DNA of 64,000 nucleotides from a virus. Shown here in pieces: positions 39,101 through 63,980 of this stretch (position 1 is its first letter; every line of letters starts with the position of its first letter). The position numbers and the translations under genes were made by a program. The stretch lies in the IMG/VR virus record IMGVR_UViG_3300042691_042551, positions 1 through 64,000 of that record; one strand, given 5' to 3'. The notes beneath the pieces are model-generated. The model had not been told where the DNA came from. It saw nothing but the letters and a program-made list of their open reading frames with translations, and made no database searches.

Positions 39101-42100
39101 AAAGCAATGCCTCAGCATGTTACATCAAATATATACGAGTACAACGGGAGGACATTTGTAAATAGCAATCAACTTGTTAACGATAACTACGGTGTTAACC
39201 AAAACACAATGGAAACCATTGCTAACGATATGGGTATTAGCATAGGCAGAATCATCAAAATGGCTGAAGATTTAGATACTGCATCCGATTTTTTGCATCA
39301 GTTTGTAATGGATAATGTTCTTGGAAGAAACTCAAACCACAATAGAACTGAAGCAAAAAGAATGATGGCCGGCTTTAATTCAAATGTTGTAAACAACATA
39401 CCAGATGATATTATGCGTCTGTTTGATTCAAAAATGAACGGTTGGACTATTGATGAAGATTTATCTCAAGGATCTTACTTCTCAACCGGCATGATGGTTT
39501 CTGGAAACAACAACATTGTTTCTTTCAATAATCAAGGGGATGTAAAAGTAACCAGTATTGGGGCTTCATTTAAAGAAAGCGATTATTCAGTTTATGATAC
39601 TCAAAGTCCTATTTTAAACGCAAAAGCTGCTCATAAACAAAAACTTATGATGAAGGCTGCAATACAAGGTGTGTTTTTAGAAGGTCAGGGCTATCCGGTA
39701 AAAAAACTTGAAATTATTGTTGCTGAAGCCAATGGTGTAGTTGGTGGGGCCGAAGCTATTGAAATGACAATGGATGAAGCAAGAAGTATTGTAAGAGCTT
39801 ATGTTATTGACAAGGTTGCAGATCGCATGGGCGCTTTTGAAGCAATGCCAATAAGTAATGAGGACTTTATGAAAAATCCTCAGAACATATATGGCAATTA
39901 TTACATTGATAAAGCCTTATCTGCATTACGCGATATTACCGATGAAGATAGAGAAGCACTTCGCCAGGGTTTTAAAAAGAATACAATGGTTAGTCTTGGC
40001 AATGTGGACCTAGAAGCTCAGGTATCGCTTTATGAGCAATCGTATAATAACGTAAAAGCATTGCTAAAAAGCGGAAGTATTGAAAACATGACTGAAAAGG
40101 ACATGATTGAATTGCTGGGTGACATTAAGCATTTAGAAAGAATGAGTGATGATGCTGATGTTTCCGGGATAAAATCAATCTTAAATGGCATTACCGATGT
40201 AATACTGATGCAGCGAGAGGGAAATACCTTAAAAGAGTCAATAGCTATATCAAAAGCATCTAATGTTACAGACATCGCTCAGTGGATTCCTTCCATTACC
40301 AATTCACTTCAAACCTTAAACCTTGGAGTTAACACGTCCGAAATAACAGATACCATTGCTCACTCAATCGAAGAAAATCAGAATGAAGCACAAGATTTTC
40401 AAACCAAATTGAGAAAAGCAGCCATAGAAGCTGTTAAGTCAAGAAATGTTCGTTTTGCTAAAGCAAGAGCGACCTTGAACAAATACTATTTGAGCGATAA
40501 TCCATTAGAGAAAGCTTTTCAAAGATTAACGGTGCCTTATTATGGTTCGGTTCAAACTACACGGCTTAAATCTCTTAGCGAAGCTTCAGTTGACTTAGCA
40601 AATGGAAACATTACTCAGGCAGAATATGAGTTATTGCAGTTAGTAAATGGTTTTTATCAAAAAAACGCAAGATACATATACAATAACAAGGGTGTCAACC
40701 ATGGTGGTTTATCATCTGAAGGTGCAGCTATATTTGAAACTCCGGCAAACGATAGACAATTCTTCTTACCATACTACCCAAGCAAAGTATTTGAACGGTA
40801 TAAAAACAAACCAAAAGCATTTGCTGCATTGGCTTCTTACTGGCATAATTTCAGAAATAACAGTTCTGAATTACAGAATGTTAAGTTAGATTCATACGAG
40901 TTTCGGGATGCAAACGGTTCTTTAGTTCGCGTATTTAAAAACAGTACAGTACGTGAGATAATGAAAGAAATGGAGGATTTGGAAAGAAAAGAAGGTGAAT
41001 TAAGAAGGATTGCTTTCCAACGAAACCCAAATGCAGTATTGCCACAGGCCAAGTATTCAACAGAAAAAGCAATTAAAAACCTATACGATGCTGCTATTAA
41101 AGCGGATAAAGGTAAAAATGCACAAAACCAAAGCAAACAGCAACAACACACAATGACGTTGCCGGGCATGGTTCGAACTAAAGAAAACGTAGCTAATGGA
41201 AACATGTTTTCAAATCTGATGAATTATTCCGGTGAGGTTTATAAAGCAAAAGCACTAGTTGAATCAAGGGGTGCGTATTCAATATTGGACATACTTGCAG
41301 CAAACTTAAACCTGAATGAAATCCGAAACTATATTGATTGGGATGAACGCGTTAGATTGCTAAAACAGAAATACAAAGAAGATAAACACGAGTTTATACA
41401 TCAAGTAGCTCGTTTTGCTTCTTCAATGGCCAGATATGCACAACTTGCATTTAAGATACCAAATGCTATGTTTGACTTTGCAGCAACATCATTAAGTGCT
41501 GCTACGGCAATGGACGGCATTACAAAAGAAGATAAACTTGCTTGGGCCAAATACATTGGGAACGCATCATTTGTAAATTATCCATTCGCTGTAATGAAGC
41601 TTGTCTATAATTTTCATGAAATACGCGATATAGCATTGGCTTTTGGGTTGTTTAATCATAGAGATTACTCTACAAGAAAAAAATCACCATTAGGGCTTGT
41701 AAAAGGGGCTATGTTATTAAACTACTGGCTATCTGGCAATATACCCAGGTTGGTATTTTTGGCCGATCAATTAACACTAAAAGATCTCAAGAACATACAA
41801 AATATCACTCAAACCAATAAAACTGGCGAATGGCTAAGTTTTCTTACCGGGCAACGTGAAAAACGCGATATACTGAAAGGTTTAGATAAACAAACCCTTA
41901 CAAATGTAAGGCGTGCATTAGATCGGACTGAAAATGAATTAGGTAAATTTAGAAATTCAACGGAACGTATTTATTTGTCAAATGGCACTATTTCAGCATT
42001 TATGCAGTACAAGTCGTGGGCACCAGATTTAATATGGGCGCGTTTTGGTGGAGAGTATAAAACAAACGGTGTAACTTACATGGGTAGATACAGAGCTTTG

Positions 42101-42631
42101 GCCAAAATGATAAATGGTACTATGCCTGATAATATGTCACAACAAGAGAAGAACAAATACATAATACAGGCTACAAATGGTATTGCCATGACCTCATTGA
42201 TGGTTTACATACTTGCACAACCGGTAGATTCTGGGGATGATGATGAAGAAAAATACAGGAATTTATTTGAGAAAATTATGGTTCAGTATCTATTTTTAAG
42301 CCCAAAGAGTATTATACAAGCAGCTTCCCGTTCATTGCCGGCAATCGGTTGGATGGCCGATGTTTATTACAATGGATGGAAAATACTCTCACAAAAAGAA
42401 GAATTATACCAAAAAAACTCAGGTAGAAACTCCAAAACCCAATATAAGAAAGGAGATAGCAAAAACGTAAGAGCTTTTGTCAAAACATTACCAGGAAACG
42501 CGTTGTATGTAGATAAACTAAGTAATGAAATAAACGCTATGAGGAGACAATCAAGTAGCGGATCTGGCTTTGGTGATTTTGGAGGCGACTTCGGTGGAGA
42601 TTTTGGAGGCGATTTTGGAGGTGGATTTTAA
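27173..42631 (+). CDS. Giant virion protein with RNA-polymerase and metallopeptidase motifs (5152 aa)
   Basis: One uninterrupted frame, about a quarter of the window. Residues 2452-2456 are DNDGD inside 'YALSNSDNDGDRLFIFP', matching the Mg-binding DxDGD loop of two-barrel RNA polymerases; about 350 residues earlier, 'NDGVMFLSEGAG' (2099) and 'SHKGMQIVLTKK' (2142-2153) look like the lysine-bearing partner barrel, and 'GGIGTAAS' (2583) follows, as in crAss-like virion polymerases. Residues 3832-3836 are HEAFH, a zincin metallopeptidase motif, with 'EEIISEM' downstream as possible third ligand. Hydrophobic stretches lie near residues 420-490 and in the last 700 residues; the C-terminus is a repeated GDFG tail. 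Expected role: carried in the particle, ejected, and used to transcribe early genes. Domain edges are inferred. Confidence 0.8.
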   Translation: METGDPKKQKAQQVKQEVIENSPELQDALHGLNTAQKRKDDVLANKIDQVWKPIERSDKEIAEAYKRAPEPISPDEQEVELRNKESIAFLLKAKYGYKNDAVILSLAEKAMRYPEFKNKIISHKSLVQLQAEEDAAKYELNESMKKAQSGFNASLAASGETTEDFRLQDEQIVTARQKYDKAKSIKSAYEDAIRRDPAFVEKQKFDLMRSLIDVDMKYRQSIANNAIRKIGGPDKAIEVTEANSQYNYLLQEQQKAESLLQDPNYPAEKKPKLEKYLNEQLPILIKQKEDQLRKFGNVSEEVKKLEDASKTAIESYQTIKEVLNESPETLKSNKEIALRLMDRAKTIVTTGGVQELVIPDLGKSFGLSFAGTIVDMGEFFTGKTSVGDFIKREIGINEQITEKEWGGGKWMVNIASAAGATAPYLILGGIGGGARAATAKMLTARFATNIGGKIAKAGVNYLTNTLLSPATYGSLAGVYTNSFDQEFSNLILAGKSPEESYNIASKKATADAVVNVISEGIFDEASVIFKGSGVNQWIAKTGFGQFLQESNVLDAMSKGKYGMAQELGKRVFNSWASETLEEVVAMGGESYNKHMVNILAQQEIYKDILPTMHEVGVMLGSVLLTTGAMTMANRGKSIDIELAEMSKSGYDKAVRGFKTLVDTGVYSEEEVKPYMDKLQRYSNLSMAMARNALPEDIVKYDNLLNQQEELKKNMSNPSISLGEKNRLQFEINSIEAQKNELFQQAVVNSVEKEISDKIEAKNKSFIENNKKQVEKIKAESNQKGATKEEQAALNYLESTTNNVSEEAKKNGLLSSSITNVNSSIAQTEEQLQKEENLLKQLKQEKNERGVAAQEEKVAEVKNQLDNLNQVAVGLKSLQSAQEAKVGDGLAARGKSTTTGTVKPSSEVEKTIQEKNQAKPITKAEEATKMPEFQELLASYKTEGLTKEQVRQRLIDQFGDNMSGKEFSKLEQSLNNYDVAPAQTAKENAPQQPQGKQFAASPAATKTSNFYSKTNGNTIKVETQEDGTKQVVEIDQKTKKEVKRTSVPEAQSKKSDFEIASEITGQKLDKQFTGKTKKTAKKSDSEYVAEAKKTLGENVQESDIAEYVRKKIASGELDMKTAKRVSTALKNAFLDKKGKARQARGRKNQEEEAKAEEQRKKEVNDLIEQAESARETIRQANQLQEVFQEATQESVVQSDTHEAAVEAETAKTKANGIGSLSKKEIMLMNIKNITGKVFSGVMGFHKQAMVDGKFVEESYKRVQEMIYEQFKSLMMNKFDLDLTTYERNEEGYLLFDENDENVEALTEMNRVLSVFDPNVAEILLESIDDTAKVFGEKGANFHALIKHAISELGKSYGFPNYAAIEESVEDAEVLEHTAEILESGESILQEVIDKEMNSKAVKSAEAIAKLAHAVFLQKAKNANVNVSINPDYSLSFLMPLFKGVNGQSRTITDVLNYIQARLASENHPINDTQGRLLMESIGQVLYDLQNKMYEQTDGINELKQNPMTMTFIERSLSSIFNSQISDVYATYLSAKGKVSVYVANRDKIKKDVISQIRSEVRNFVQSIYAVSDLEGGQRRSRFIQAIAKVRMNIDNPESVLFAGDEVLLAMGNEYPYIKDILTRKLDAIRNTTVKSPTQVEEVGRYILMLSSPQAANLESNPMIEQMAFEQIANSEKIFGKISQSQYWSNRLSQNQSAVKRPNRMSSSISEAKAEALNNKKKPTEDAQKNDMDDSVNVVTNSKNRNFGSEGSDRKARLSKNPLVAIKSIAKNLSVTMLGEFSIEKGKTIALKAEKMSREMVHLAKIAMFYQTKNFGKYGYGVIDQVSDSPRIHMINGARIQLNGENKFVFAGDVKYPGSLIEDGSLLLDAVQTAVMKAKEMFPGITIKQMEQHIPSFYKIDGTGKVTYNPTALENEAFKSFNDYIKAKSKMYYDPKAGDSIAKTERAYKAILEATKELYYANDYKTGKENFEKKIAFIKNNRDMEVTKGMSDFAKNLIDNDQIVEWSKKKKGNFKNFFKEFVANEEFNRFYANQYVRGDLESYMNLDPDNVFVRSKMITAPGIGVNVDLPMRYMILDKNLYNGSDKIMLDVNGNQVPWVPNDGVMFLSEGAGNVITAGVGPHHGYRGTFKYAMHSVNDQNVATSHKGMQIVLTKKLAESNPALMSIYNMMKENNLDAVLDHSAEKIGAEKRTKAGWNESGVTLEEAPIVHTANFGDIYVQLSVSENQKGMWSKDSDQKNRQTPLYAGSSEQGIEYVNKIQNFIANRIKSGVFNSAQRSARFNKLMNNYRFSTEENKQEAKDELISYLKRKSKREPLSVREKYNQIISRIETGYVFEYDDGLLYQVHASTFREGMSNRMESFYMALTSPLLGKEQPKYRLEDRPGFSEVVLPAKMKELLSDYADNDGNYWVTGVKIPYNNSATQLRAKVIFDESLDDNGSNVIPPAEFYALSNSDNDGDRLFIFPMHPNPENIVSPLKEFGINIDENTTFDSLLSEYTTKSQEDDWNGPSFDYVSMLYEDYLAAKELEYNGKLFNDVAFAQQMAVQSNDVNVFLSVVESEGYKTKTKNTSSNEGQLQRVTEKNFSAGGIGTAASYIRSISQFIQLGMDYGLRVAMRSSRSKPYLFNFNNEVFDPAVMETVPTLNQKPINIRDIESQAVQKAIANNPDYANLTPDLQENLVSNERNKLLQELESLVEEESMLNTQNATSQILQVYVDAVKKGYLNKVGLNNQNMQVFIHLATRLGLNEKVPGQGIRMALRLVNQPIVKKYFELTEYNPMIQDQYSQRDYELIDKLKKNLAELVPNDMQNNINTLDVNLNALKNEYNGKHIQDTEYNTENQLIGDYALAQIEAIKALESLLDIQAAVSPYSLNSKKFSEVPTTIEEARTFIHEMEKYQALATDEEVKATLKKIENAQRTGKNANLVISEMLQNNGRYSSPMVFNVRNDADNYQRLVNSYEFLKQLNDKSGPLYEKEKGKYIEAGFSESAISDMLNNLAKIHTNMLLTGNMHVFENQEMFAKAEGYFMMMASIADSNTAYDSKNNKMVFDFMSRLFPRAGKMFHKLVGKFQEGYNRQILQEVLSQKVMLSENQKKDFSYAMSKILKVLFENKQYFSGNLFLNNLEIQTFEDKNILPIRVESDGSAVYIDKHYVLEDGIFKQANLVPINKLTDAIIFNDVLKTDPLRAFLDVILGNQILSENIMFDETRKRFVNKKTGYIYGSEKNTQASDVKDSERIFTAGTTSVPEYREALISLASDIFGTIRQSSLEGIENESTETMWNWAAMMYFDKNENQRLSPRYNTPQNEEITLSQNGRVTFSQEQLKDIANGISTLFDGLNNIRYNANGEAIGTIADAIRYELESNQIDEGFLSEDIISNPNAWLLYFSNNNTYPQVEKLLGILKADNEENHANIRSLINENFLGYDMISFAKNSIKTILNNPTLTQFYDQAMISQMKSDDPKAQSIAKRHEFFHTKLDNGQIVLYKRVQAGYTETKNFFGRFQKVPNYKYIAIGRYSSNGEVERSMFTNGRLESSVDGVLQLLTQEGVHNLDYDSAIKKISEIIYGSSSGSIDTVGFLADIQKKFETLKSEKFKKIRGYNHPEFFDMMISEFEQAVVKGIYDNKGDVFKDTKAQLLLQTIRAIRSVKQANDKLFVNNNFVIDNAEFTEITNAPIDSQNTREKARRATNRVWQRNAESQTLSAFDIARNIVETLKGNVSTTRSKSLFEYLEVKSKGNKGRRIAQSTSAGSGPKMFSNVNDMIDLFQAQLNGNPLLGSVAKFLKEQVGGIPVSVVDNQEFEALEQSIFGTTGTARAIYIPSQRQIVFNGDRSSLDAPELIIHEAFHAFTNAAINDPNNVDLRNDMVELRNVVFNSNYRLNTTNPMAVQTLNDIFADPNLDEFGQMEEIISEMFSDKTGQMQALLNNIRVGQGTLEQYKGENKTLFGKILDTISKYLAKMGIGKNTDSVRQVLENILTTYEDIMTYEKAMPQHVTSNIYEYNGRTFVNSNQLVNDNYGVNQNTMETIANDMGISIGRIIKMAEDLDTASDFLHQFVMDNVLGRNSNHNRTEAKRMMAGFNSNVVNNIPDDIMRLFDSKMNGWTIDEDLSQGSYFSTGMMVSGNNNIVSFNNQGDVKVTSIGASFKESDYSVYDTQSPILNAKAAHKQKLMMKAAIQGVFLEGQGYPVKKLEIIVAEANGVVGGAEAIEMTMDEARSIVRAYVIDKVADRMGAFEAMPISNEDFMKNPQNIYGNYYIDKALSALRDITDEDREALRQGFKKNTMVSLGNVDLEAQVSLYEQSYNNVKALLKSGSIENMTEKDMIELLGDIKHLERMSDDADVSGIKSILNGITDVILMQREGNTLKESIAISKASNVTDIAQWIPSITNSLQTLNLGVNTSEITDTIAHSIEENQNEAQDFQTKLRKAAIEAVKSRNVRFAKARATLNKYYLSDNPLEKAFQRLTVPYYGSVQTTRLKSLSEASVDLANGNITQAEYELLQLVNGFYQKNARYIYNNKGVNHGGLSSEGAAIFETPANDRQFFLPYYPSKVFERYKNKPKAFAALASYWHNFRNNSSELQNVKLDSYEFRDANGSLVRVFKNSTVREIMKEMEDLERKEGELRRIAFQRNPNAVLPQAKYSTEKAIKNLYDAAIKADKGKNAQNQSKQQQHTMTLPGMVRTKENVANGNMFSNLMNYSGEVYKAKALVESRGAYSILDILAANLNLNEIRNYIDWDERVRLLKQKYKEDKHEFIHQVARFASSMARYAQLAFKIPNAMFDFAATSLSAATAMDGITKEDKLAWAKYIGNASFVNYPFAVMKLVYNFHEIRDIALAFGLFNHRDYSTRKKSPLGLVKGAMLLNYWLSGNIPRLVFLADQLTLKDLKNIQNITQTNKTGEWLSFLTGQREKRDILKGLDKQTLTNVRRALDRTENELGKFRNSTERIYLSNGTISAFMQYKSWAPDLIWARFGGEYKTNGVTYMGRYRALAKMINGTMPDNMSQQEKNKYIIQATNGIAMTSLMVYILAQPVDSGDDDEEKYRNLFEKIMVQYLFLSPKSIIQAASRSLPAIGWMADVYYNGWKILSQKEELYQKNSGRNSKTQYKKGDSKNVRAFVKTLPGNALYVDKLSNEINAMRRQSSSGSGFGDFGGDFGGDFGGDFGGGF

Positions 42632-53275: not shown

Positions 53276-53447
53276 TGTGCACGATAATATCATTCGCGAA
53301 ATCACTTATATTTACGAATCTGCTAACAAAAAAGAAGTTTTAATTAAAATGGTTAGGTTATCAGATAAAAATGTTGCAACTTTGAAGCTGTCCCAGTTTG
53401 AAGACATGGTAAAGCTTGGTTGTTTTACTCTTTACACTGGTGGATAG
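53232..53447 (+). CDS. Hypothetical protein (71 aa)
   Basis: ATG at 53232, inside the previous gene; a GTG at 53277 would avoid the overlap. The protein (WVNVHDNIIREITYIYESANKKEVLIKMVRLSDKNVATLKLSQFEDM) has the look of a small SH3-like or RNA-binding barrel (DUF-type), without a secure family. It ends 10 nt before the terminator of the late operon and its 3' end overlaps the convergent primase gene by 16 nt. Confidence 0.45.
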   Translation: MIGNTSIQVNQRWVNVHDNIIREITYIYESANKKEVLIKMVRLSDKNVATLKLSQFEDMVKLGCFTLYTGG

Positions 53448-54487
53448 TGTCGAAAAGGCGGCTTAACGGCCGCTTTTTTTTTGATCACCGGTTCAATTTT
53501 AGCAAATCGCCATCCAGACTTAGTAGGACCAAATTCATAAACAATAGTAGACTGTATCTGCATTAAACGCCACATTGGGCCAAAATTTGGTTTAGGTGGC
53601 AACTGGCATTTTTTTATGAAGGTATACACTTCATCTTTAGTCCATTCTTTGTCAGCACAATCCCAGCCTTTGGGCAAGCTTTTAGTAATCGGTATAATCA
53701 TTATTTTACGCTCAATAATGTGCTGTATGTGCAGCATTGCATTAAGCCCTTGTACATCGTTATCCGGCCACTGAAGAATTGACCTATCTTTTATTGGCGA
53801 CCAGTCAGTATTATGCACAGCATTGGTGCCACCGATCCATGTTGTTACTACTAACTTTTCTGAACCAATTATTTTCTGAAGGTGATCAGCGCATTTTTCG
53901 CCTTCTACAATGATAATTTTGGCTTCTTTGTACTTTTCTATTAAGTCAAGGTTATATAACGGCCTAGGCAAAGAAAACCCCATAAAACGCCATTCTTGTT
54001 TATTTCCATTGGTTGCATATACGTAGGGCATTATTTCTTTTCCTTCTGGAGTATCAAACCGGCATATATACCCGTAGCTTTTTCCTTCTTTGGTTTTATA
54101 CACCCAAACTTTTGATGGTTTACCATACATGTAATGATTAATTGACTTTACCGGAGATGGTGGAACACACTGTATCCAGTCAGGAGTCTTTTTTTCGATT
54201 ACTTTTTTTTCAAATTTAGGTCCGCTTATGTTATTGCCGGTTATTTCTCTGCAGGCATCAACAAAAGAACTGTTTGTATAGTCCATCACAAACTTGATGG
54301 TATCTCCACCCCATCCGCATGCAAAGCACTTGGCTATGTGCTTGGTTGAATTAATCTTCAATGACGGTTTAGTATCAGAGTGGAATGGACAGATAGATTG
54401 GTATTGAGATCCTTTTTTGCGTACATCTAGATATCGGCCAATTACCTGCTCAATTGGATATGAAGATAAAATTTGCTTAGCATCCAT
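53432..54487 (-). CDS. DnaG-type primase (351 aa)
   Basis: N-terminal CHC2-type zinc finger: Cys33-Pro-Phe-His36 and Cys54-x2-Cys57 (CPFH...CFAC). The central TOPRIM part has Glu195-Gly-Glu197 (VEGEKCADHL) and Asp242-Asn-Asp244 (WPDNDVQG), metal-binding for primer synthesis. It lacks the long C-terminal helicase-binding part of bacterial DnaG, as do many phage primases. It makes RNA primers for the fork driven by the DnaB-type helicase at 62571. Its stop overlaps the convergent late gene. Confidence 0.9.
   Translation of the reverse strand: MDAKQILSSYPIEQVIGRYLDVRKKGSQYQSICPFHSDTKPSLKINSTKHIAKCFACGWGGDTIKFVMDYTNSSFVDACREITGNNISGPKFEKKVIEKKTPDWIQCVPPSPVKSINHYMYGKPSKVWVYKTKEGKSYGYICRFDTPEGKEIMPYVYATNGNKQEWRFMGFSLPRPLYNLDLIEKYKEAKIIIVEGEKCADHLQKIIGSEKLVVTTWIGGTNAVHNTDWSPIKDRSILQWPDNDVQGLNAMLHIQHIIERKIMIIPITKSLPKGWDCADKEWTKDEVYTFIKKCQLPPKPNFGPMWRLMQIQSTIVYEFGPTKSGWRFAKIEPVIKKKAAVKPPFRHYPPV
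53457..53482 (+). terminator. Late-operon terminator inside the convergent primase gene
   Basis: Stem GCGGC/GCCGC (53458-53462 with 53469-53473) with a 6-nt loop, then T9. It ends the 45-kb rightward late module 10 nt after the last stop and lies inside the 3' end of the primase coding sequence, so it is also translated on the other strand. Confidence 0.85.
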
Positions 54488-54968: not shown

Positions 54969-57149
54969 TTATTCAAATTTAAAATCTTCTTCTATTGGGG
55001 TTTCATCTGTTATATCTGATGAAGTTTTAAGGAATATATCTACTCCAAACTGTTGATGCATTAACTCAGCAAATATGTTTACGTTTCGTTTTGCGTAATC
55101 TTCAGAACCAGTTGCAGCGTTTGACATGTTTCTTTTGCTTTCTATCAACTCAAATATCTTTTCATCAATAGTTTCGGGAGCTATAAAGTAATACGCGTTT
55201 ACCGTGCTTAATTGGCCGTTTCTATGCGCTCTGTCCTCAGCTTGATCATGTTGCGCAGCGGTCCAGTCTAGCTCTGCAAATACAACATTGGAACATACGT
55301 CTTGAAGTCCATCAATACCAGTTGAGGCAGCTCTAATTGATAAGATGATATTCATTTCATTTTGCTGCTGTTGGAATCGCTCAATCATGGTTTGCCGCAT
55401 TTTAGTTTCTGTTTCACCAGTTATTTTTAGAGAACAGTCTAGTTTTTTAGACAGTTCATCAATTATTGCTCGGTGGTGAGCAAAGATGATAACCTTTTCC
55501 CCGTTTTCGTTCATGTTTTTTACAAACTCAATCATACCTTCTATTCTTCCTGTAGCAGCAATCTTCTTTAAGTGATTGATTTTTGTAATAAATTCAGCTC
55601 TCAATATTTTTCTAGCTTGCTCGGCCGTCATTTTAAGCTTTTCATTAAGATAGTCTACAAACTGCTTATTGGCCATATTATAGAGCTCGCGATTTTCGAT
55701 GTCAATATTGATGATTTGCCGTATTTTCTCAGGCAATTCTTTTTGAACGTCAATCTTCATTCTTCTAACCATGCATGTTGATCTTAACTTCATCTGCAAT
55801 TCATCCAGATTTTTACCCGTGTTTTTAGGGCCAACGTACCGACTTAAGAACTTTGGCTTTGTTTCTGCTTTTAAGTACCCTAAAACGTATAGCTGAGGTA
55901 TTAATTCTGCTGGCTGGTTTATCACTGGCGTTCCCGTCAACAAATAGCGGTATTCTTTATTTTCAGATAGCTCTTTTACTATTTTGTACCGTTGAGTTTT
56001 TTCGTCTTTAATGTAATGGCTTTCATCCACTATTATTGACTTAAACATGTGTTTTGCTTTCAACATCTTTTTGGCGTTGTTGTACGAGCAAATGATTACA
56101 TCAGCTTTGTTGGAGTACTCACCATATACGCTAGCGGTAATGTGTGTAAACTTTGTCCATTCTTTCTTCCAGTTATAAACCACTGATTTTGGACATATAA
56201 CTATGCAAGGAAAAGCGTTTTCATGTAGCACACAAGCAATGGCTTGAACTGTTTTACCCAAACCCATTTCATCGGCAAACAATACCCTTTTTTTGGTAGT
56301 TCCATACTTTATGCCGGCTTTTTGATACGGATATGGCTCCAACTTCATATTTTCAATTTGAAACTCTTCACCGGCTTGTAGTGAGGCAATAACCGATTCT
56401 CTGTCACCGTACCATTGATACATTAAGTCTGAATGCAAGGTTATGTCGTGTTGCATTACAAACTCTTTTACTTTATTTTCTAAAGCTTTTGCTTGCCCTT
56501 CGTGGCCCATTATTGTAGGATTAACATACCATAGTTTATTGGTTGCATCCCATCCGGTTTCCATGGATATAGCCTTAAAAGTTTCTTTAAATGCGTCTTT
56601 TAGGTTAAATGGTATTATGAAATAAAAGATTGAATATTCTACGTCACCTCTAGTCATAGTAGATTCTTTCCATACCTGTTTTTCTATGCCTTTCATTCTT
56701 AGCCGTACTATCTCTTCGTTTCTGTTTAACTCCTTATGGCCTATTACAATATCAATAGTGGATGTTTTATCGGCTTTTTCTGAGTACCATTCTTCAAGCG
56801 AGTATCGCTTTATTTTTTTGAAATAGTCTTTTACAGCTTTTGCAAGGTTGCTCAACTCTTCCGGCTTTACTTTATCGTCATAGTTTGGCTCAAGGCCTGT
56901 AAGAAAAGAATTAACTTCTTGAACTTCTTTGTACTGTATTCCGCTTACTAGCTCTACTCTTGCAATATTGAAGCCTTTTTTTCTTTTACTGGCATATATT
57001 AGCTGTTCAATAGTTGATTCCGATATCATATTGCCATGAGGTCGGAGTATGCTTTCAACGTATAGCAAATCTCTTATTGGTTCTTGATACTCTTTGTCTA
57101 GTTTATCAATTAAAACTTCAATATTTTCGTTAATTCTTACTCGATTCAT
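54969..57149 (-). CDS. SNF2-family DNA translocase/helicase (726 aa)
   Basis: ATP-driven DNA translocase. Motif I is 'FADEMGLGKTVQ' with Lys299-Thr300; motif II is DESH at 375-378 (IIVDESHYIKD); motif III-like 'LLTGTPVIN' follows; motif VI is about 633-644 (QAEDRAHRNGQ). The first ~270 residues are a helical and beta N-terminal part of unknown role. SNF2 proteins of this type occur in crAss-like and other phage replication modules and could remodel forks or displace host proteins. The gene lies directly downstream of the PRTRC set. Confidence 0.9.
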   Translation of the reverse strand: MNRVRINENIEVLIDKLDKEYQEPIRDLLYVESILRPHGNMISESTIEQLIYASKRKKGFNIARVELVSGIQYKEVQEVNSFLTGLEPNYDDKVKPEELSNLAKAVKDYFKKIKRYSLEEWYSEKADKTSTIDIVIGHKELNRNEEIVRLRMKGIEKQVWKESTMTRGDVEYSIFYFIIPFNLKDAFKETFKAISMETGWDATNKLWYVNPTIMGHEGQAKALENKVKEFVMQHDITLHSDLMYQWYGDRESVIASLQAGEEFQIENMKLEPYPYQKAGIKYGTTKKRVLFADEMGLGKTVQAIACVLHENAFPCIVICPKSVVYNWKKEWTKFTHITASVYGEYSNKADVIICSYNNAKKMLKAKHMFKSIIVDESHYIKDEKTQRYKIVKELSENKEYRYLLTGTPVINQPAELIPQLYVLGYLKAETKPKFLSRYVGPKNTGKNLDELQMKLRSTCMVRRMKIDVQKELPEKIRQIINIDIENRELYNMANKQFVDYLNEKLKMTAEQARKILRAEFITKINHLKKIAATGRIEGMIEFVKNMNENGEKVIIFAHHRAIIDELSKKLDCSLKITGETETKMRQTMIERFQQQQNEMNIILSIRAASTGIDGLQDVCSNVVFAELDWTAAQHDQAEDRAHRNGQLSTVNAYYFIAPETIDEKIFELIESKRNMSNAATGSEDYAKRNVNIFAELMHQQFGVDIFLKTSSDITDETPIEEDFKFE

Positions 57150-57471: not shown

Positions 57472-57912
57472 TTATAATACACCTTCATCTCTCATACTAT
57501 AGTAATTATCTTCAGTAATTATTAAGCTATCAAGCAATTCTATATCTAGTAACGCAAGAGCAGCTTTTATTTTACTTGACAATTTTTTGTCAGTATCACT
57601 AGGGTTTTTGTTACCGGATGGATGATTGTGTGCTACAATAACGCTTGATGCATGCGAAAGCAAAGCTGTTTGAGCAATCATTTTTATATCTGCAGTCGTA
57701 TAATCTGTAGCACCGCTACTATGTTTGTGTATAGCAATTACACGATTTGCCCGGTTTAATGCTATTACTAGAAACTCTTCACGCCATAGCATTGTATCTG
57801 AGTTGAAATAATTCCGTATTACCTTGGCTGTATCATCTGAAGATTTTACTATGTATTTTTCGTCTGTTTTGTTTTTCCACTTTACTGTTATTTCGATTTC
57901 TGGGAGTACCAT
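57472..57912 (-). CDS. radC: RadC-type JAB/MPN metalloprotease-like protein (146 aa)
   Basis: A JAB/MPN domain with the RadC signature: Glu45/Glu46 (WREEFLVIAL), His95-x-His97 (AHNHPSG), Ser105 and Asp108 (NPSDTD), the JAMM zinc set. In PRTRC cassettes a JAB protein (protein A) accompanies the ThiF enzyme and is thought to cut or process the ubiquitin-like partner. RadC proteins also occur alone in phages and mobile DNA, so this could instead be an independent RadC. Its start overlaps the ThiF gene by 25 nt, tying it to the set. Confidence 0.85.
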   Translation of the reverse strand: MVLPEIEITVKWKNKTDEKYIVKSSDDTAKVIRNYFNSDTMLWREEFLVIALNRANRVIAIHKHSSGATDYTTADIKMIAQTALLSHASSVIVAHNHPSGNKNPSDTDKKLSSKIKAALALLDIELLDSLIITEDNYYSMRDEGVL

Positions 57913-58619
57913 AATTTTTGAATTTTTAATGTTTTACTATTGATAAATGCACCGTACCAATCGGTTTTATTATCGTTGAATAGAGACCAAACTAATTTGC
58001 CGGCTACTAATGCAACAAACTTATTAATCATTAAATCTTGCCTTTCTAATGCTTCTGCCAGTGAGCAGCTATTTCTGTTTTTTCTATCTACTTTGGTTTT
58101 TAAGTCGGGGTTAAAGTCAAATATTGACTTTGTGTTTTCAGCTTTTAATAGTACCTGGCCGGTTTCTTTGTCATTGCCGGTATCAAGCCACCCAAATAGT
58201 CTATTTTGTTCTATGTAATGAGGATTCATTGCTAATAGACTGTCGGCAAATATTCTAGGCTTTATTCTATCTGTACAGGTAATTATTAAGTTTGGATATT
58301 CTCTATAGCTTTTCTCGCTAAACAAGTTTGGGCTACTTTCCCATTTGTAACCATAAAATCGGTTAATTCGTTCTATCGTTACTTCGGCTTTGTTTCTACC
58401 AATATCTTGTTCGTTGAATAGTTGCCTACCAAAATTTGCTTCAGTCACTACATCTGGATCCATCGCAGCTACTTTTATACCCTTTTTACCTAGCTTTATA
58501 AGGGCATGGTTGATTCTGGCCAACTCCTGCAATAGCATTGAACCGGTGCCACCGCAACCAGCTACAAGTATCTTGGTTTGGTGTATGTCTCTTAAAACAT
58601 ATTTTTTTAGATTTTCCAT
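57888..58619 (-). CDS. PRTRC-type ThiF/E1 activating enzyme (243 aa)
   Basis: E1-like adenylating fold: GCGGTG at 21-26 (VAGCGGTGSML) for ATP, then Asp54 (AAMDPDVV), Asn62, Arg65 and Lys77 in the adenylation site, and Asp117 (TCTDRIK). The PRTRC-type phrase 'NSCSLAEALERQDL' carries Cys185, a candidate thioester cysteine. The enzyme would adenylate the C-terminal glycine of the ubiquitin-like protein at 60241-60450. The gene overlaps protein B upstream by 13 nt and the JAB gene downstream by 25 nt. Confidence 0.85.
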   Translation of the reverse strand: MENLKKYVLRDIHQTKILVAGCGGTGSMLLQELARINHALIKLGKKGIKVAAMDPDVVTEANFGRQLFNEQDIGRNKAEVTIERINRFYGYKWESSPNLFSEKSYREYPNLIITCTDRIKPRIFADSLLAMNPHYIEQNRLFGWLDTGNDKETGQVLLKAENTKSIFDFNPDLKTKVDRKNRNSCSLAEALERQDLMINKFVALVAGKLVWSLFNDNKTDWYGAFINSKTLKIQKLWYSQKSK

Positions 58620-59242
58620 TTTCTTTTTACCAATAATTCTATTGGAAACTCTTTTTTACCTAGGAGTTTTCCATATTTTGATGTGCTTAGTTTAGTCTTA
58701 TTTGTAAAATGAGTGAATATTGAGTTTTCAAAAACGCATGATTCAACTTCTTTTATGATCTCAGCAATGTTTTGTTTTTTCTTAGGTTCTGCATTTCCAA
58801 AGCAAAATGTATCAGAATTATTAGGGATAGGTCCATAATAGTAGTTTTCTTCACCGCATTCGGCCACAATTTCTAAAATGAATAATTTGGTGTTGTATTT
58901 CCAAATTAGGTCAGGTACCGGATACATTCCAGATTCAATGCCCATATCTACATCAAAATACATCTGTCTTTGTCCTTTTGAGGTTTTCCACCATAATGTG
59001 CATCCATTTCCTTTTGCATTAATTTTTATGAGGTTTTGAGGAATATCTCCTTCTAGTACGGTATTTTCTTCCTTTTTAAGCAATTCAGCAGCATACTTTT
59101 CAAAAGATGAAAGATCTACTGGTTTACCAGCAGATAATTTGCCATCTATAATTCTTCTTTCTTCTATTAATGTTTCATTACCCAAATTAGATCCATAGAA
59201 TATTAAGGCTTTACTTGGTACGTATTTTTTATCGAATTGCAT
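58607..59242 (-). CDS. PRTRC protein B, E2-like (211 aa)
   Basis: Matches the PRTRC B pattern: N-terminal 'PSKALIFYGSNLGNETLIEERRIIDGKLSAGKPVDL', middle 'LWWKTSKGQRQMYFD', and a C-terminal 'PIPNNSDTFCFGNAEP' with Cys147, which lies where E2-like family members carry a conserved cysteine. PRTRC B has been proposed to adopt an E2-like conjugation fold. It overlaps protein F by 40 nt and ThiF by 13 nt. Function is inferred from family resemblance read by eye. Confidence 0.75.
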   Translation of the reverse strand: MQFDKKYVPSKALIFYGSNLGNETLIEERRIIDGKLSAGKPVDLSSFEKYAAELLKKEENTVLEGDIPQNLIKINAKGNGCTLWWKTSKGQRQMYFDVDMGIESGMYPVPDLIWKYNTKLFILEIVAECGEENYYYGPIPNNSDTFCFGNAEPKKKQNIAEIIKEVESCVFENSIFTHFTNKTKLSTSKYGKLLGKKEFPIELLVKRKWKI

Positions 59243-60162
59243 AAATTAAAGATTATTTCATCATTGATTAAAGCACATACTTTATCATGATAATCTTCTA
59301 TTTTTACTTTTTTTTCAGGTGTATAAAGATTTCCAACAAGCTTGCTTCCACACATTCCAAAGCCCTCTTCGTGTGATCTAATCTGACTTATTATTTCTTG
59401 TTCTTGCGGTCCATCATCTCTTACAAAAACGTAAGTTAGCGATTCATGTATTGATTCTTCCGAATTTTTTATTGCAAATCCAGCCTGCAGATAAACATTC
59501 TTATAAACCAATTCCAAAACTTTACAAAGCCATTCATATAGTTTAGCTGATTTTACCAATTTAATTTGATCAGAAAACTCTTTTATCGTGCATGGTATTT
59601 TAGGACTAGCAATGTACTTTTTTTTAATAAGTTGCGAATAATACATACTTGCAGCCTTTTTTTCTTCTATAGTAGTTGCGGAAGATAGATTATCATAGTA
59701 TATTTCTTTGGTATAGTCTGCAAAAACATTATCGCTCATGCTATAAAAACCCATTCTTTCAAATATCCATAATGCCATTCTAATTGCTTTGCTATCGGGC
59801 AATCTCATATCTAAGCTTAGTATTGGACCGATTCTTACAATGTGAGGCCTTATTTCAAGTTCTTGGCTAACAGTGATAAGCAGTTCATAGTCAGATTCAA
59901 TAATATCAAAATCGCCTATTTTTTGGTGTGTTAAATCAATTAATTTGGAAATAGCCTCTTGTCGATTCTTGCACTGTTCAAAATCAGTATGCTTTATAAA
60001 TCGATTTTTCAGAGCAATGTTATACAAGATTTCAAGTTTATCGATTGATATGTCTTTTTCTGAATTTATTTCTATTTCATACTTTGGCCTTATGGTAATG
60101 TGCTCGGTAAGCAATCTTTCGCTGTTTCTTTTTGGTCTTCGAACTCCCTGTATGTTTGCCAT
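59203..60162 (-). CDS. Probable PRTRC protein F (319 aa)
   Basis: Lies where PRTRC F stands, directly before protein B and overlapping it by 40 nt. The length (~320-370) fits the family. N-terminus basic (MANIQGVRRPKRNSERLLTEH), the rest mainly helical with a late 'HEEGFGMCGSKLVGNLYTP'. Its biochemical role is unknown. Because the sequence is less distinctive than that of C, E, B and ThiF, the name rests mostly on position. Confidence 0.6.
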   Translation of the reverse strand: MANIQGVRRPKRNSERLLTEHITIRPKYEIEINSEKDISIDKLEILYNIALKNRFIKHTDFEQCKNRQEAISKLIDLTHQKIGDFDIIESDYELLITVSQELEIRPHIVRIGPILSLDMRLPDSKAIRMALWIFERMGFYSMSDNVFADYTKEIYYDNLSSATTIEEKKAASMYYSQLIKKKYIASPKIPCTIKEFSDQIKLVKSAKLYEWLCKVLELVYKNVYLQAGFAIKNSEESIHESLTYVFVRDDGPQEQEIISQIRSHEEGFGMCGSKLVGNLYTPEKKVKIEDYHDKVCALINDEIIFNLCNSIKNTYQVKP

Positions 60163-60196
60163 TTTTTAAGCCGTTTTTTAACTTTAATTAAACTAA

Positions 60197-60224
60197 AAAA
60201 GCGAGGAGTTTCCCCCTCGCTTTT
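60197..60224 (-). terminator. Terminator splitting the PRTRC set
   Basis: A perfect 10-bp stem AAAAGCGAGG/CCTCGCTTTT (60197-60206 with 60215-60224) with an 8-nt loop; on the minus strand it is followed by T6. It lies 17 nt after the stop of the ubiquitin-like gene (protein C) and before protein F, so E-C mRNA can end here while F-B-ThiF-JAB expression is reduced or starts separately. Confidence 0.8.
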
Positions 60225-60240
60225 CTTTCTATTGTTACTT

Positions 60241-60450
60241 TTAGCCATTGGTACCCATTTTTGTTTTTATCTCGTAGATAAGCAGTTCCTCGGTTGAGTT
60301 CTTTGAGCGTTGTATAGCTGCAGAAATAAACTCGGGATACTGGTTTGAATAAAATTCTATCACCTGATAAGGCGTTGCGGTCGGGTCCGGATCCGGGAGA
60401 GTTTTATTATCATAGATAAACTCTCGTTTGATAGATTGTACTTTTAGCAT
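60241..60450 (-). CDS. PRTRC protein C, ubiquitin-like (69 aa)
   Basis: Small beta-grasp protein of the PRTRC C family, recognised by 'VQSIKREFIYDNKTLPDPDPTATPYQVIEFYSNQYPEFISAAIQ'. The sequence ends in glycine (KTKMGTNG, Gly69), which the ThiF enzyme could adenylate and conjugate. It starts 2 nt after protein E and is followed by a terminator. Small size and C-terminal Gly fit a ubiquitin-like modifier; conjugation has not been shown here. Confidence 0.85.
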   Translation of the reverse strand: MLKVQSIKREFIYDNKTLPDPDPTATPYQVIEFYSNQYPEFISAAIQRSKNSTEELLIYEIKTKMGTNG

Positions 60451-60452
60451 AA

Positions 60453-60899
60453 TTAAAACAAGGTTGGAGTTTCTACTGCTTTTGGTTTTGCTATTTCGGC
60501 TGATGAATCAGTTTCTTCTGCATTATCTTCTTCTTCTTCTTCTTCTTCTATTTTTTGCAAACTAGCGTTTGATGTTGCCGGTTTAGATGGTTGTTTAGGG
60601 TTTCTTTTCTTTTGAAGCTTGTCTTTTTCAGCTTGATCAATTTGGCGAAGGATTTTAATGTTTTCCTCAATGTTGGAAACAATTCCTTTTACCTCGTTGA
60701 TTTTGTCTTTGTTTAGCACGCTAAAAAACTCACTGTCAAGTTCATCTATTGTACCGCTAATAACGATAGGTTCAAAAGCTTTTTCTTTACTTTCAAGCAC
60801 TATCATTACTGATACTTTCTCATTGATTTTTGCAATAGTCATGTTTAGTTTGCCCGCTTCCATTAGCGGCAATACTTGGCTGAAAAAATTAGTTGTCAT
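60453..60899 (-). CDS. PRTRC protein E (148 aa)
   Basis: Follows the PRTRC E pattern: 'NFFSQVLPLMEAGKLNMTIAKINEKVSVMIV', then 'PIVISGTIDELDSEFFSVL', then a helical part and an acidic low-complexity end (EEEEEEDNAEETDSSAE). Role unknown; in the family it always accompanies protein C and may be its partner or substrate. It directly follows the nuclease gene at 60902 and precedes protein C by 2 nt. Confidence 0.8.
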   Translation of the reverse strand: MTTNFFSQVLPLMEAGKLNMTIAKINEKVSVMIVLESKEKAFEPIVISGTIDELDSEFFSVLNKDKINEVKGIVSNIEENIKILRQIDQAEKDKLQKKRNPKQPSKPATSNASLQKIEEEEEEEDNAEETDSSAEIAKPKAVETPTLF

Positions 60900-61733: not shown

Positions 61734-62375
61734 TTAGAATGGTAAATCATCTTCAGGCAATACCTTTGGAATATCCTGAATTGTGTTGAATACCGGAGCA
61801 TTCATTTTTGGTTCGGGATGGTGCTGGTTTTGCTGTGCATTTCCACCTGACTCTTTTTCTGAAGACAATTCAGCAGTGTAGTTTTTGATAACTTTGTTTA
61901 GTCCTGATTGTTCTAGCATCATTGCCATTGTTTCTTCAGTGTATAGCGCAAGAGCTGAACTGAAGGAATGACCAGCCGGAATACCTTCAACTGACATTCT
62001 CTGAATGGCAATATCGGTAGCAGCAATAGTAAGCTTTACCTTATTGTTGCAGATCAGGTCTAATTTGCTGTACTTACTCGAACCGGAGTATCCACCAGGC
62101 TTATATCCATTTGATGGTTTTTGTTCATTTACCGGCTTATAGACAATATTGGTGTATTGTCCATTCTGGCGAACACTTCTCTCAAACTTGGTTTCTACCC
62201 CTACGGTAAACTTATTACACGTTGAAGATGTAGAATGCCATTCACCGGTTTCTGTGCCGTTGTTATACTGCATTGTAATTGAATGGACGTAAATTGTGCC
62301 ACCCATCTTTGATTGGTAGCTTTTTTTGGCTTCTGTGATTTCGGTTGGTGTACCTGTTAGAATTGTTGGTGTCAT
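61734..62375 (-). CDS. SSB-tailed replication protein (213 aa)
   Basis: The C-terminus (LPEDDLPF) is the SSB-type interaction tip, following a Gln/His/Pro-rich linker. The N-terminal part is beta-rich (GGTIYVHSITMQYNNGTETGEWHS...) and could be an OB-fold or an annealing protein; the fold is not certain. Its place next to the DnaB helicase, nuclease and SNF2 genes supports a role in coating or annealing single strands. A second SSB-tailed protein is encoded at 2659-3342. Confidence 0.7.
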   Translation of the reverse strand: MTPTILTGTPTEITEAKKSYQSKMGGTIYVHSITMQYNNGTETGEWHSTSSTCNKFTVGVETKFERSVRQNGQYTNIVYKPVNEQKPSNGYKPGGYSGSSKYSKLDLICNNKVKLTIAATDIAIQRMSVEGIPAGHSFSSALALYTEETMAMMLEQSGLNKVIKNYTAELSSEKESGGNAQQNQHHPEPKMNAPVFNTIQDIPKVLPEDDLPF

Positions 62376-62570: not shown

Positions 62571-63980
62571 TTAGAATGGTGCAATATGTCCAGGGATTGG
62601 CATAAAATTGCTGTCATTTTCTTCTTCAGAGTACTCATTTGATGAATTATTAAATCTTCTATTTAGTTCTATTGATAGCTCGTTTTCTGCTATTTGTGGA
62701 TCTTCTATGTAGGCAAACGCTTTTTGCCACGTCATTTTCTTGGTAAAAGGACTTCCACCACGAAACTTCTTGAAGATAAACATTATTTTGTCTTGGTCCT
62801 CAGGGGCAACATCTACTTTATCTTTGTAGTAATCTGGTCGAAATAAAAAACAAACCATGTCGGCATCCTGTTCCAATGAACCAGAATCACGCAAATCTTC
62901 CAAATCGGGTATAAAGTCTTCTATTTTAGCCTTTTTGTTATCTGTTCTCTTGGTTATCCTAGATAGTTGAGATAAAGCAATAATTGGCACATCAAGCTTT
63001 TTTGCTAGTCTTTTTAGACGTTGTGATACGTTGCCTACCTTCTCATTCATATTGTTGCCGTTTCCGCCTGTAATGAGTTGCAAATAGTCAATTACTATGA
63101 TTTTTACTCCTTTGTTGATTACTAAGGCTTCGGTTTTGGTTTCAATATCGTCTATCGAGTATATGTTGTCTATCAAATGACCGTGCTCGGGCATCGTTTT
63201 ACAGACCATTTGAAACAATCTCATTTCTTCTTCGCTAAAAGCGCCAGCCGTAATCTTGTTAAGATTAGTATGGTTTATCGCTGAGAATATCCGCTTTATG
63301 ATTTCGGATGAACGCATTTCCAAAGAGAAAAAAGCAAATGGTATTGAACTTTTAAATAGGTAGTTTTGGATCATTGATACAACACATGCAGTTTTGCCCA
63401 TCCCGGGCCGTCCGGCTATAAGTATCAAATTAGTCTTTCCCCAACCACCTGTATGCTGATCTATTGATAAAAAACCGGTAGATACGCCAGGCGTTCTTCC
63501 TTTTTCCTTGTTTATCCTTTCTTCTTCAGCTATTTGCTTTGCAATGGTCCTTGTATCTGTTGGTGTTATGTTCTTTAGTTCAATCATTTCATCAAGCTTT
63601 CCACGTATTCCATTTATCCACTCAAATACATCTTCATTTGATTTATTAGCATTTACCATTGCAAATGCTGTGCTTAGTAGGTCTTTTGCATGAACTTCTA
63701 TTGAGAGTTCTTTTAACAATCTTGTCTCTTTTACAATGAGTTGTTGGCTTTTTTGCTCAAGATAATACTCTTGTATCTTAGCAATTTTTGAAGGTACTAT
63801 TTTTTCAAGAACTTTGTCCTTTTTTAACCATAACAACAATAGTTCGGGAGAGTCAATAACTGTGGCCGATTTGTACGCATTTACAATGGAACTAAAGATA
63901 AGCCTGTTTTCTTCATCTGAAAAATCAGTTTCTTTTATGTACTGAAGTATTTTCAGGTAATTCTCTTCCGATGTTATCAT
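62571..63980 (-). CDS. dnaB: Replicative DNA helicase, DnaB type (469 aa)
   Basis: RecA-like C-terminal helicase domain with Walker A at 193-197 (GRPGMGKT), Walker B near 297-302 (IIVIDYLQLI), and later 'DLRDSGSLEQDADMVCFLFRPDYY', the standard DnaB motifs. The N-terminal ~170 residues are a short helical domain, with an acidic C-terminal end (EEENDSNFMPIPG). It forms a hexamer that unwinds DNA ahead of the primase at 53432. Start at 63980, just inside the window end. Confidence 0.92.
   Translation of the reverse strand: MITSEENYLKILQYIKETDFSDEENRLIFSSIVNAYKSATVIDSPELLLLWLKKDKVLEKIVPSKIAKIQEYYLEQKSQQLIVKETRLLKELSIEVHAKDLLSTAFAMVNANKSNEDVFEWINGIRGKLDEMIELKNITPTDTRTIAKQIAEEERINKEKGRTPGVSTGFLSIDQHTGGWGKTNLILIAGRPGMGKTACVVSMIQNYLFKSSIPFAFFSLEMRSSEIIKRIFSAINHTNLNKITAGAFSEEEMRLFQMVCKTMPEHGHLIDNIYSIDDIETKTEALVINKGVKIIVIDYLQLITGGNGNNMNEKVGNVSQRLKRLAKKLDVPIIALSQLSRITKRTDNKKAKIEDFIPDLEDLRDSGSLEQDADMVCFLFRPDYYKDKVDVAPEDQDKIMFIFKKFRGGSPFTKKMTWQKAFAYIEDPQIAENELSIELNRRFNNSSNEYSEEENDSNFMPIPGHIAPF

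What the first reader, a model, noticed from the sequence alone, without database searches (positions are those of the whole stretch)
57472..60899. Phage-borne ubiquitin-like (PRTRC) conjugation set inside the replication module
Six adjacent minus-strand genes read as PRTRC protein E, protein C (69 aa, ubiquitin-like, ending in Gly), protein F, protein B (E2-like with Cys147), ThiF/E1 (GCGGTG, Cys185) and a RadC-type JAB peptidase, with overlaps of 13-40 nt between most of them. PRTRC sets are known from plasmids and conjugative elements; a near-complete set in a lytic-type phage next to SNF2, nuclease, SSB-tailed and DnaB genes is unusual. It may modify replication, host or defence proteins. 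The ParB and actin-like members are not seen here.
Basis: partly seen in the sequence, partly recalled or inferred. Interest (0 to 1): 0.88.

Follow-up and report, generated by a model that had tools for sequence, protein, structure and literature searches.

The report
Phage ubiquitin-like cassette near replication genes
A phage carries a set of genes for attaching a ubiquitin-like protein to other proteins; the same set turns out to be common in phages, and hints (neighbouring sliding-clamp genes and a clamp-binding-like tail on one member) suggest that it works at the DNA replication machinery, much as ubiquitin acts on PCNA in our own cells.

Summary
In detail: six minus-strand genes at 57472-60899 form a PRTRC cassette. 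Profiles assign ThiF (E1), C (Ubl), E and the E2-D-like B; the JAB is RadC-type, not PRTRC A; 'protein F' is identified by position only. The record is a genuine phage without ParB, PRTRC D or integrase matches.

I found no paper describing this.

Two new clues point to the sliding clamp. In 15 of 20 surveyed viral records holding a clamp gene, it lies directly upstream of E (two more at or inside the cassette). E proteins of phages, ICEs and plasmids carry tails with [STDNQG][LMI]F (58 of 72; 9 expected), often C-terminal (window: TPTLF), resembling the clamp-binding motif QLxLF.

Best reading: a Ubl-conjugation cascade tethered to clamp-bound replication proteins. E1/E2/Ubl chemistry is well supported by sequence; the clamp target is inference, and the window phage itself encodes no detectable clamp.

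The parts
60453..60899 (-). PRTRC protein E (148 aa): N-terminal domain, acidic low-complexity linker, C-terminal ...ETPTLF
   Evidence: TIGR03741 41.8 bits over cut-off, Pfam PRTRC_E 1e-14; tail motif enrichment in the family
60241..60450 (-). PRTRC protein C, ubiquitin-like modifier (69 aa) ending in the conserved Gly69
   Evidence: TIGR03738 over cut-off, Prok_Ub 2.5e-16; 118 of 121 unextended C proteins end in Gly
59203..60162 (-). Positional protein F (319 aa), fast-diverging; homology to PRTRC F not shown
   Evidence: no family match; an ORF over 200 aa sits between C and B in 152 of 155 loci; hhalign to the Bacteroidota-type F family only 36% probability
58607..59242 (-). PRTRC protein B, E2-D-like (211 aa); catalytic candidate Cys147, also His178
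   Evidence: Prok-E2_D 1.7e-10 over cut-off; Cys147, Pro138, Asn141, Gly149 invariant, His178 at least 90% in 59-60 relatives
57888..58619 (-). PRTRC ThiF, E1-like (243 aa): GCGGTG nucleotide loop, Cys185 in NSCSLAEAL
   Evidence: TIGR03736 1.2e-57; invariant columns
57472..57912 (-). RadC-type JAB metalloprotease-like domain (146 aa), HNHPSGNKNPSDTD
   Evidence: PF04002 1.2e-35, solved relative 2qlc; JAMM motif
60090..60248 (-). 52-aa ORF filling the C-F gap, doubtful gene
   Evidence: no family match
54969..57149 (-). SNF2-type helicase, flanking replication module
   Evidence: PF00176 1.8e-35, phrog_62 3.6e-107
62571..63980 (-). DnaB-like helicase, flanking replication module (the longer frame starts beyond the window)
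   Evidence: PF03796 2.2e-65
53432..54487 (-). CHC2 zinc-finger primase-like protein, flanking replication module
   Evidence: PF01807 1.9e-23

Best explanation
A phage-encoded ubiquitin-like conjugation cascade of the PRTRC kind that is delivered to the replication machinery. ThiF adenylates the C-terminal Gly69 of C (via its GCGGTG loop) and takes it as a thioester on Cys185; it passes to Cys147 of the E2-like B; the amide is then formed on a target protein. E acts as a tether: its tail motif (TPTLF here; QTSLF, QNSLF, PSLF, LDLF elsewhere) docks on the sliding clamp, the phage's own where it has one and presumably the host's in this phage. The targets are then the clamp or clamp-bound polymerases and repair proteins, a prokaryotic analogue of PCNA modification. 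In this phage a RadC-type JAB could remove the modifier. Shown by sequence: family membership, invariant catalytic residues, conserved gene order, terminal Gly, clamp adjacency in relatives, tail motif of E. Inferred: enzymatic activity, clamp binding, identity of the targets, role of RadC and of F.
For: Family matches; invariant ThiF Cys185 and B Cys147; the Gly terminus of C kept in 118 of 121 unextended C proteins, while 31 of 34 viral cassettes with a type-A JAB have C extended by 48-100 aa after GTKG and no A-minus cassette does, as expected if the Gly end matters and A can expose it. A sliding-clamp gene lies directly upstream of E (gap -10 to 109 nt) in 15 viral records, just upstream of an E-like ORF in L040 and inside the cassette in L013; in fecal phage clone L004 the clamp overlaps the ThiF stop by 4 nt. 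By record, 17 of the 20 with a clamp have it at the cassette. Tail of E: [STDNQG][LMI]F in 58 of 72 non-redundant E proteins against 9.1 expected (maximum 16 in 500 shuffles); [LMI][FY] within the last 3 residues in 26 of 72 against 28 of 518 neighbouring proteins, Fisher p 3e-12. Clamp-binding motif definition and frequent C-terminal position: PMC11139829.
Against: The window phage has no detectable clamp and its motif TPTLF lacks the Gln of the canonical motif; canonical Q..[LM][FL] is only moderately enriched (12 of 72 vs 3.2 expected). Fisher and adjacency counts are not corrected for shared ancestry. The AlphaFold model of window B (pLDDT 86) gave no PDB fold match at E<=0.001, so an E2 fold was not confirmed structurally. 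RadC linkage recurs in only two other loci. I found no biochemistry for any PRTRC set.
Confidence: 0.42

Rival explanations
1. The cassette is a real Ubl-conjugation system, but it targets host defence, nucleoid or other proteins (counter-defence or host takeover); its place among replication genes reflects early expression only.
For: Phages keep host-takeover genes beside early replication genes (own knowledge); ThiF resembles E1s of bacterial anti-phage systems (PADLOC E1-E2; Cap2 structures).
Against: The same cassette is on plasmids and ICEs, where counter-defence is less obviously the common need; it does not explain the clamp linkage or the tail of E.
Confidence: 0.25
2. ThiF and C carry out sulfur transfer or small-molecule or peptide modification (ThiS/MoaD/MccB-like), not protein conjugation.
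For: ThiF family chemistry is shared with ThiF, MoeB and MccB.
Against: Nearly always coupled to a B protein with an invariant Cys and, in many, to a JAB; no sulfur-donor gene seen beside the cassette in the window.
Confidence: 0.1
3. The RadC-type JAB is an unrelated replication/repair accessory gene that merely follows ThiF, and the conjugation set here is JAB-less like that of other Bacteroidota-type phages.
For: No JAB within 10 kb in nearly all A-minus loci; RadC linked only in the window, L044 and L090.
Against: It overlaps ThiF by 25 nt, and in three separate loci a RadC JAB sits at or near a cassette that lacks PRTRC A.
Confidence: 0.45
4. The enriched [S/D/T]LF tail of E binds something other than the clamp.
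For: Short motif; SSB, a helicase or a cassette protein could be the partner; the Gln is often missing.
Against: Match to clamp-motif positions 4-5, C-terminal placement as in Pol II and Pol IV, and clamp adjacency of E.
Confidence: 0.35

Closest known systems
PRTRC cassette of plasmids and ICEs (NCBIfam TIGR03734-TIGR03742)
   Same: E, C, F-position, B, ThiF in the same order; conserved Cys and Gly
   Different: no ParB, no PRTRC D; PRTRC A absent and a RadC JAB beside ThiF instead; F not recognisable; on a phage
Iyer, Burroughs and Aravind 2006 operon class 6d (PMC1779556): Ub-like, JAB, E1, E2-like, alpha-helical protein
   Same: Ubl with terminal Gly, E1, E2-like with conserved Cys and a His C-terminal to it (His178 here), fast-diverging fifth protein
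   Different: the JAB of class 6d has an extra N-terminal domain; ours is RadC-type. The table row for 6d names bacteria, not phages
Burkholderia phage BgVeeders33 (OK665841) cassette
   Same: phage-borne E-C-F-B-ThiF
   Different: has PRTRC A and a C protein extended by 62 aa after GTKG; annotated only as hypothetical proteins and a dinucleotide-utilizing enzyme
Bacterial antiviral Ubl systems (Bil, CBASS Cap2)
   Same: E1/E2 with Ubl or E1-E2 with JAB logic
   Different: other E2 families and gene order; encoded by hosts against phages (own knowledge; PMC10097602 for CBASS)
PCNA ubiquitylation/SUMOylation
   Same: proposed analogy only: a modifier delivered at the sliding clamp
   Different: no homology claimed; clamp modification untested here

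Membership tests
PRTRC system | ThiF of TIGR03736 | tested here: met
   195 bits vs cut-off 144.75
PRTRC system | protein C, TIGR03738 | tested here: met
   52.8 vs 45.95 bits
PRTRC system | protein E, TIGR03741 | tested here: met
   41.8 vs 37.95 bits
PRTRC system | protein B, TIGR03737 | tested here: inconclusive
   E 2.4e-9 but 36.9 bits, below cut-off 131.45; Pfam Prok-E2_D over cut-off; 26% identity with BgVeeders33 B, same invariant Cys
PRTRC system | protein F, TIGR03742 | tested here: not met
   no match even at E 10; position only
PRTRC system | protein A, TIGR03735 (JAB) | tested here: not met
   no PRTRC_A match; RadC instead
PRTRC system | ParB-related protein, TIGR03734 | tested here: not met
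   no match in 72,690 bp
PRTRC system | actin-like protein D, TIGR03739 | tested here: not met
   no match in 72,690 bp
Iyer class 6d | E2-like with conserved Cys and a conserved His C-terminal to it | tested here: met
   Cys147 invariant, His178 at least 90%; definition
Iyer class 6d | JAB with N-terminal alpha+beta domain | tested here: not met
   RadC-like JAB only, 146 aa
E2 (UBC) fold | structural similarity to solved E2s | tested here: inconclusive
   helix, strands, PxxN...C, helix order in the model, but no Foldseek PDB hit at E<=0.001
clamp-binding motif | Q-phi-x-[L/M]-[F/L] | tested here: inconclusive
   window TPTLF lacks the Gln and the aliphatic position 2; family-level enrichment of the xLF core is strong
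Ubl conjugation system | covalent adducts of the modifier | not testable with these tools
   needs biochemistry

The most novel reading that the evidence does not exclude
PRTRC cassettes are clamp-directed ubiquitin-like conjugation systems of mobile replicons: E is a clamp-binding adaptor that delivers the modifier to the beta-type sliding clamp or its clients, an independent prokaryotic counterpart of PCNA ubiquitylation that many phages carry to control their own or the host's replisome.
Probability: 0.3. Interest if true: 0.92.

Novelty: new variant of a known kind. Interest (0 to 1): 0.74.

Why it matters
PRTRC was named from gene neighbourhoods and, as far as I could find, has no tested function. 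Finding it in many phages, beside the sliding clamp, and with a clamp-motif-like tail on E gives a concrete, cheap hypothesis for what it does. If right, ubiquitin-like control at the sliding clamp exists in bacteria and phages; a 2024 review notes that modifications of the beta-clamp have hardly been explored (PMC11139829).

Tried and rejected
Close relatives by single-protein scans of viral contigs with window ThiF, C and F: none. DNA similarity to phage records: none. Fold searches: the F-family model (L033, pLDDT 85) has no PDB match at E<=0.001 and one in BFVD, an uncharacterised phage protein; window B has none in PDB. Claim that Bacteroidota-type phages acquired the set several times: not supported, AU test p 0.127. 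Link between C extension and JAB A as independent events: at most one of 4-5 independent pairs informative. phrog_2 was not counted as a terminase marker because it rings in 11 of 14 control genomes. The 2024 Bil papers are not held in the library.

Full report
1. What is there. The six minus-strand ORFs are present at the stated coordinates. ThiF, C and E exceed their NCBIfam PRTRC cut-offs; B matches TIGR03737 weakly but exceeds the Pfam Prok-E2_D cut-off; the JAB is a RadC-type domain; F matches nothing. Overlaps are F/B 40, B/ThiF 13 and ThiF/RadC 25 nt; E and C are 2 nt apart, C and F 78 nt. In PHROGs, C, B, E and F have no significant family match.

2. Where it is. The window is part of a 72,690-bp linear IMG/VR record. 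It is a phage: terminase large subunit phrog_6681 3.4e-57, portal, major head protein, tail and endolysin genes. The cassette lies among SNF2, a CHC2 primase-like gene and DnaB, with an SMC/RecF-like ATPase further on. No integrase, ParB or PRTRC D was found; that fits, but does not prove, a lytic phage.

3. Catalytic residues. ThiF keeps its glycine loop and Cys185 invariant among six diverse relatives. B keeps Pro138, Asn141, Cys147 and Gly149 invariant and His178 nearly so in 59-60 relatives; Iyer et al. 2006 described this Cys plus downstream His for their operon class 6d (PMC1779556). C ends in Gly in 118 of 121 relatives without an extension.

4. How common. A profile scan found 182 IMG/VR contigs (80 fetched) and 456 genome contigs encoding a PRTRC-type ThiF; tblastn found 379 plasmid records and three GenBank phage records. 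Two large phage groups appear: Burkholderiales-type, E-C-F-B-A-ThiF, with BgVeeders33 as a GenBank example whose six proteins all pass their cut-offs; and Bacteroidota-type, E-C-F2-B-ThiF without a JAB. Host groups are read from the organisms of related genome contigs and are inference for the contigs themselves. At least 16 of 49 surveyed viral records also carry a terminase over a Pfam cut-off or of phrog_6681; many records are fragments, so this is a floor. In the ThiF tree the window is a long, deep branch of unsure place. I found no paper that reports PRTRC in phages; this rests on an open-access library only.

5. JAB and precursor. PRTRC A (HSHx...SxxD) accompanies the Burkholderiales-type phages; there C runs 48-100 aa beyond the GTKG end in 31 of 34 cases, with differing extensions, whereas no A-minus cassette has an extension. 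This looks like a ubiquitin-precursor arrangement, but few independent changes support it, and A also occurs with unextended C. A RadC JAB beside an A-less cassette occurs in the window, L044 and L090.

6. The clamp. A recurrent neighbour of about 377 aa upstream of E is a DNA polymerase III beta-type sliding clamp. It ends within -10 to +109 nt of E in 15 viral records, and lies at or inside the cassette in L040 and L013; in three more records it is elsewhere. In the divergent fecal phage clone L004 the clamp overlaps the ThiF stop by 4 nt. The window record has no clamp match.

7. The tail of E. After the conserved N-terminal region, E proteins are low-complexity and end, or nearly end, in motifs such as QTSLF, QNSLF, QSSLF, QPQLF, QLSLL, PSLF, KSLF, LDLF, VDMY and, in the window, TPTLF. 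[STDNQG][LMI]F is found in 58 of 72 non-redundant tails against 9.1 expected; C-terminal placement is enriched at p 3e-12 over neighbouring proteins (ancestry not corrected). The known clamp-binding motif is Q-phi-x-[L/M]-[F/L], often C-terminal, with strong demands on the last residue and a Gln that helps but is dispensable (PMC11139829). Q-containing forms are fewer (12 of 72 vs 3.2). That E binds the clamp is therefore a well-motivated inference, not shown.

8. Mechanism and verdict. The chemistry (ThiF Cys185, B Cys147, C Gly69) is strongly suggested; the target is proposed to be the clamp or its clients; RadC as deconjugase is open.

Noticed in passing
L003:11782-12171 and 31 other viral loci: Ubl C fused in frame to varied 48-100 aa extensions after GTKG, only where a PRTRC A JAB is present; looks like a processed precursor.
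   Followed up: partly
L033:2365-3498 (F-position protein family of Bacteroidota-type cassettes): Confident AlphaFold model (pLDDT 85, pTM 0.81) with no PDB fold match at E<=0.001: possibly a new fold.
   Followed up: partly
window 27173-42631: A single 5,152-aa ORF in the structural half of the phage, unexplained.
   Followed up: no
L002:9098-9928 (window record beyond 64000): 276-aa protein that by eye resembles a Cas4/RecB-type nuclease (Cys-rich C-terminus); no Pfam match.
   Followed up: no
L015:12984-15059 and relatives: Downstream of several phage cassettes, a 691-aa fusion of amidoligase, phage DAM-like and GNAT-like domains.
   Followed up: no
window 61734-62375: 213-aa protein with an acidic DDLPF tail like that of SSB; no family match.
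   Followed up: no
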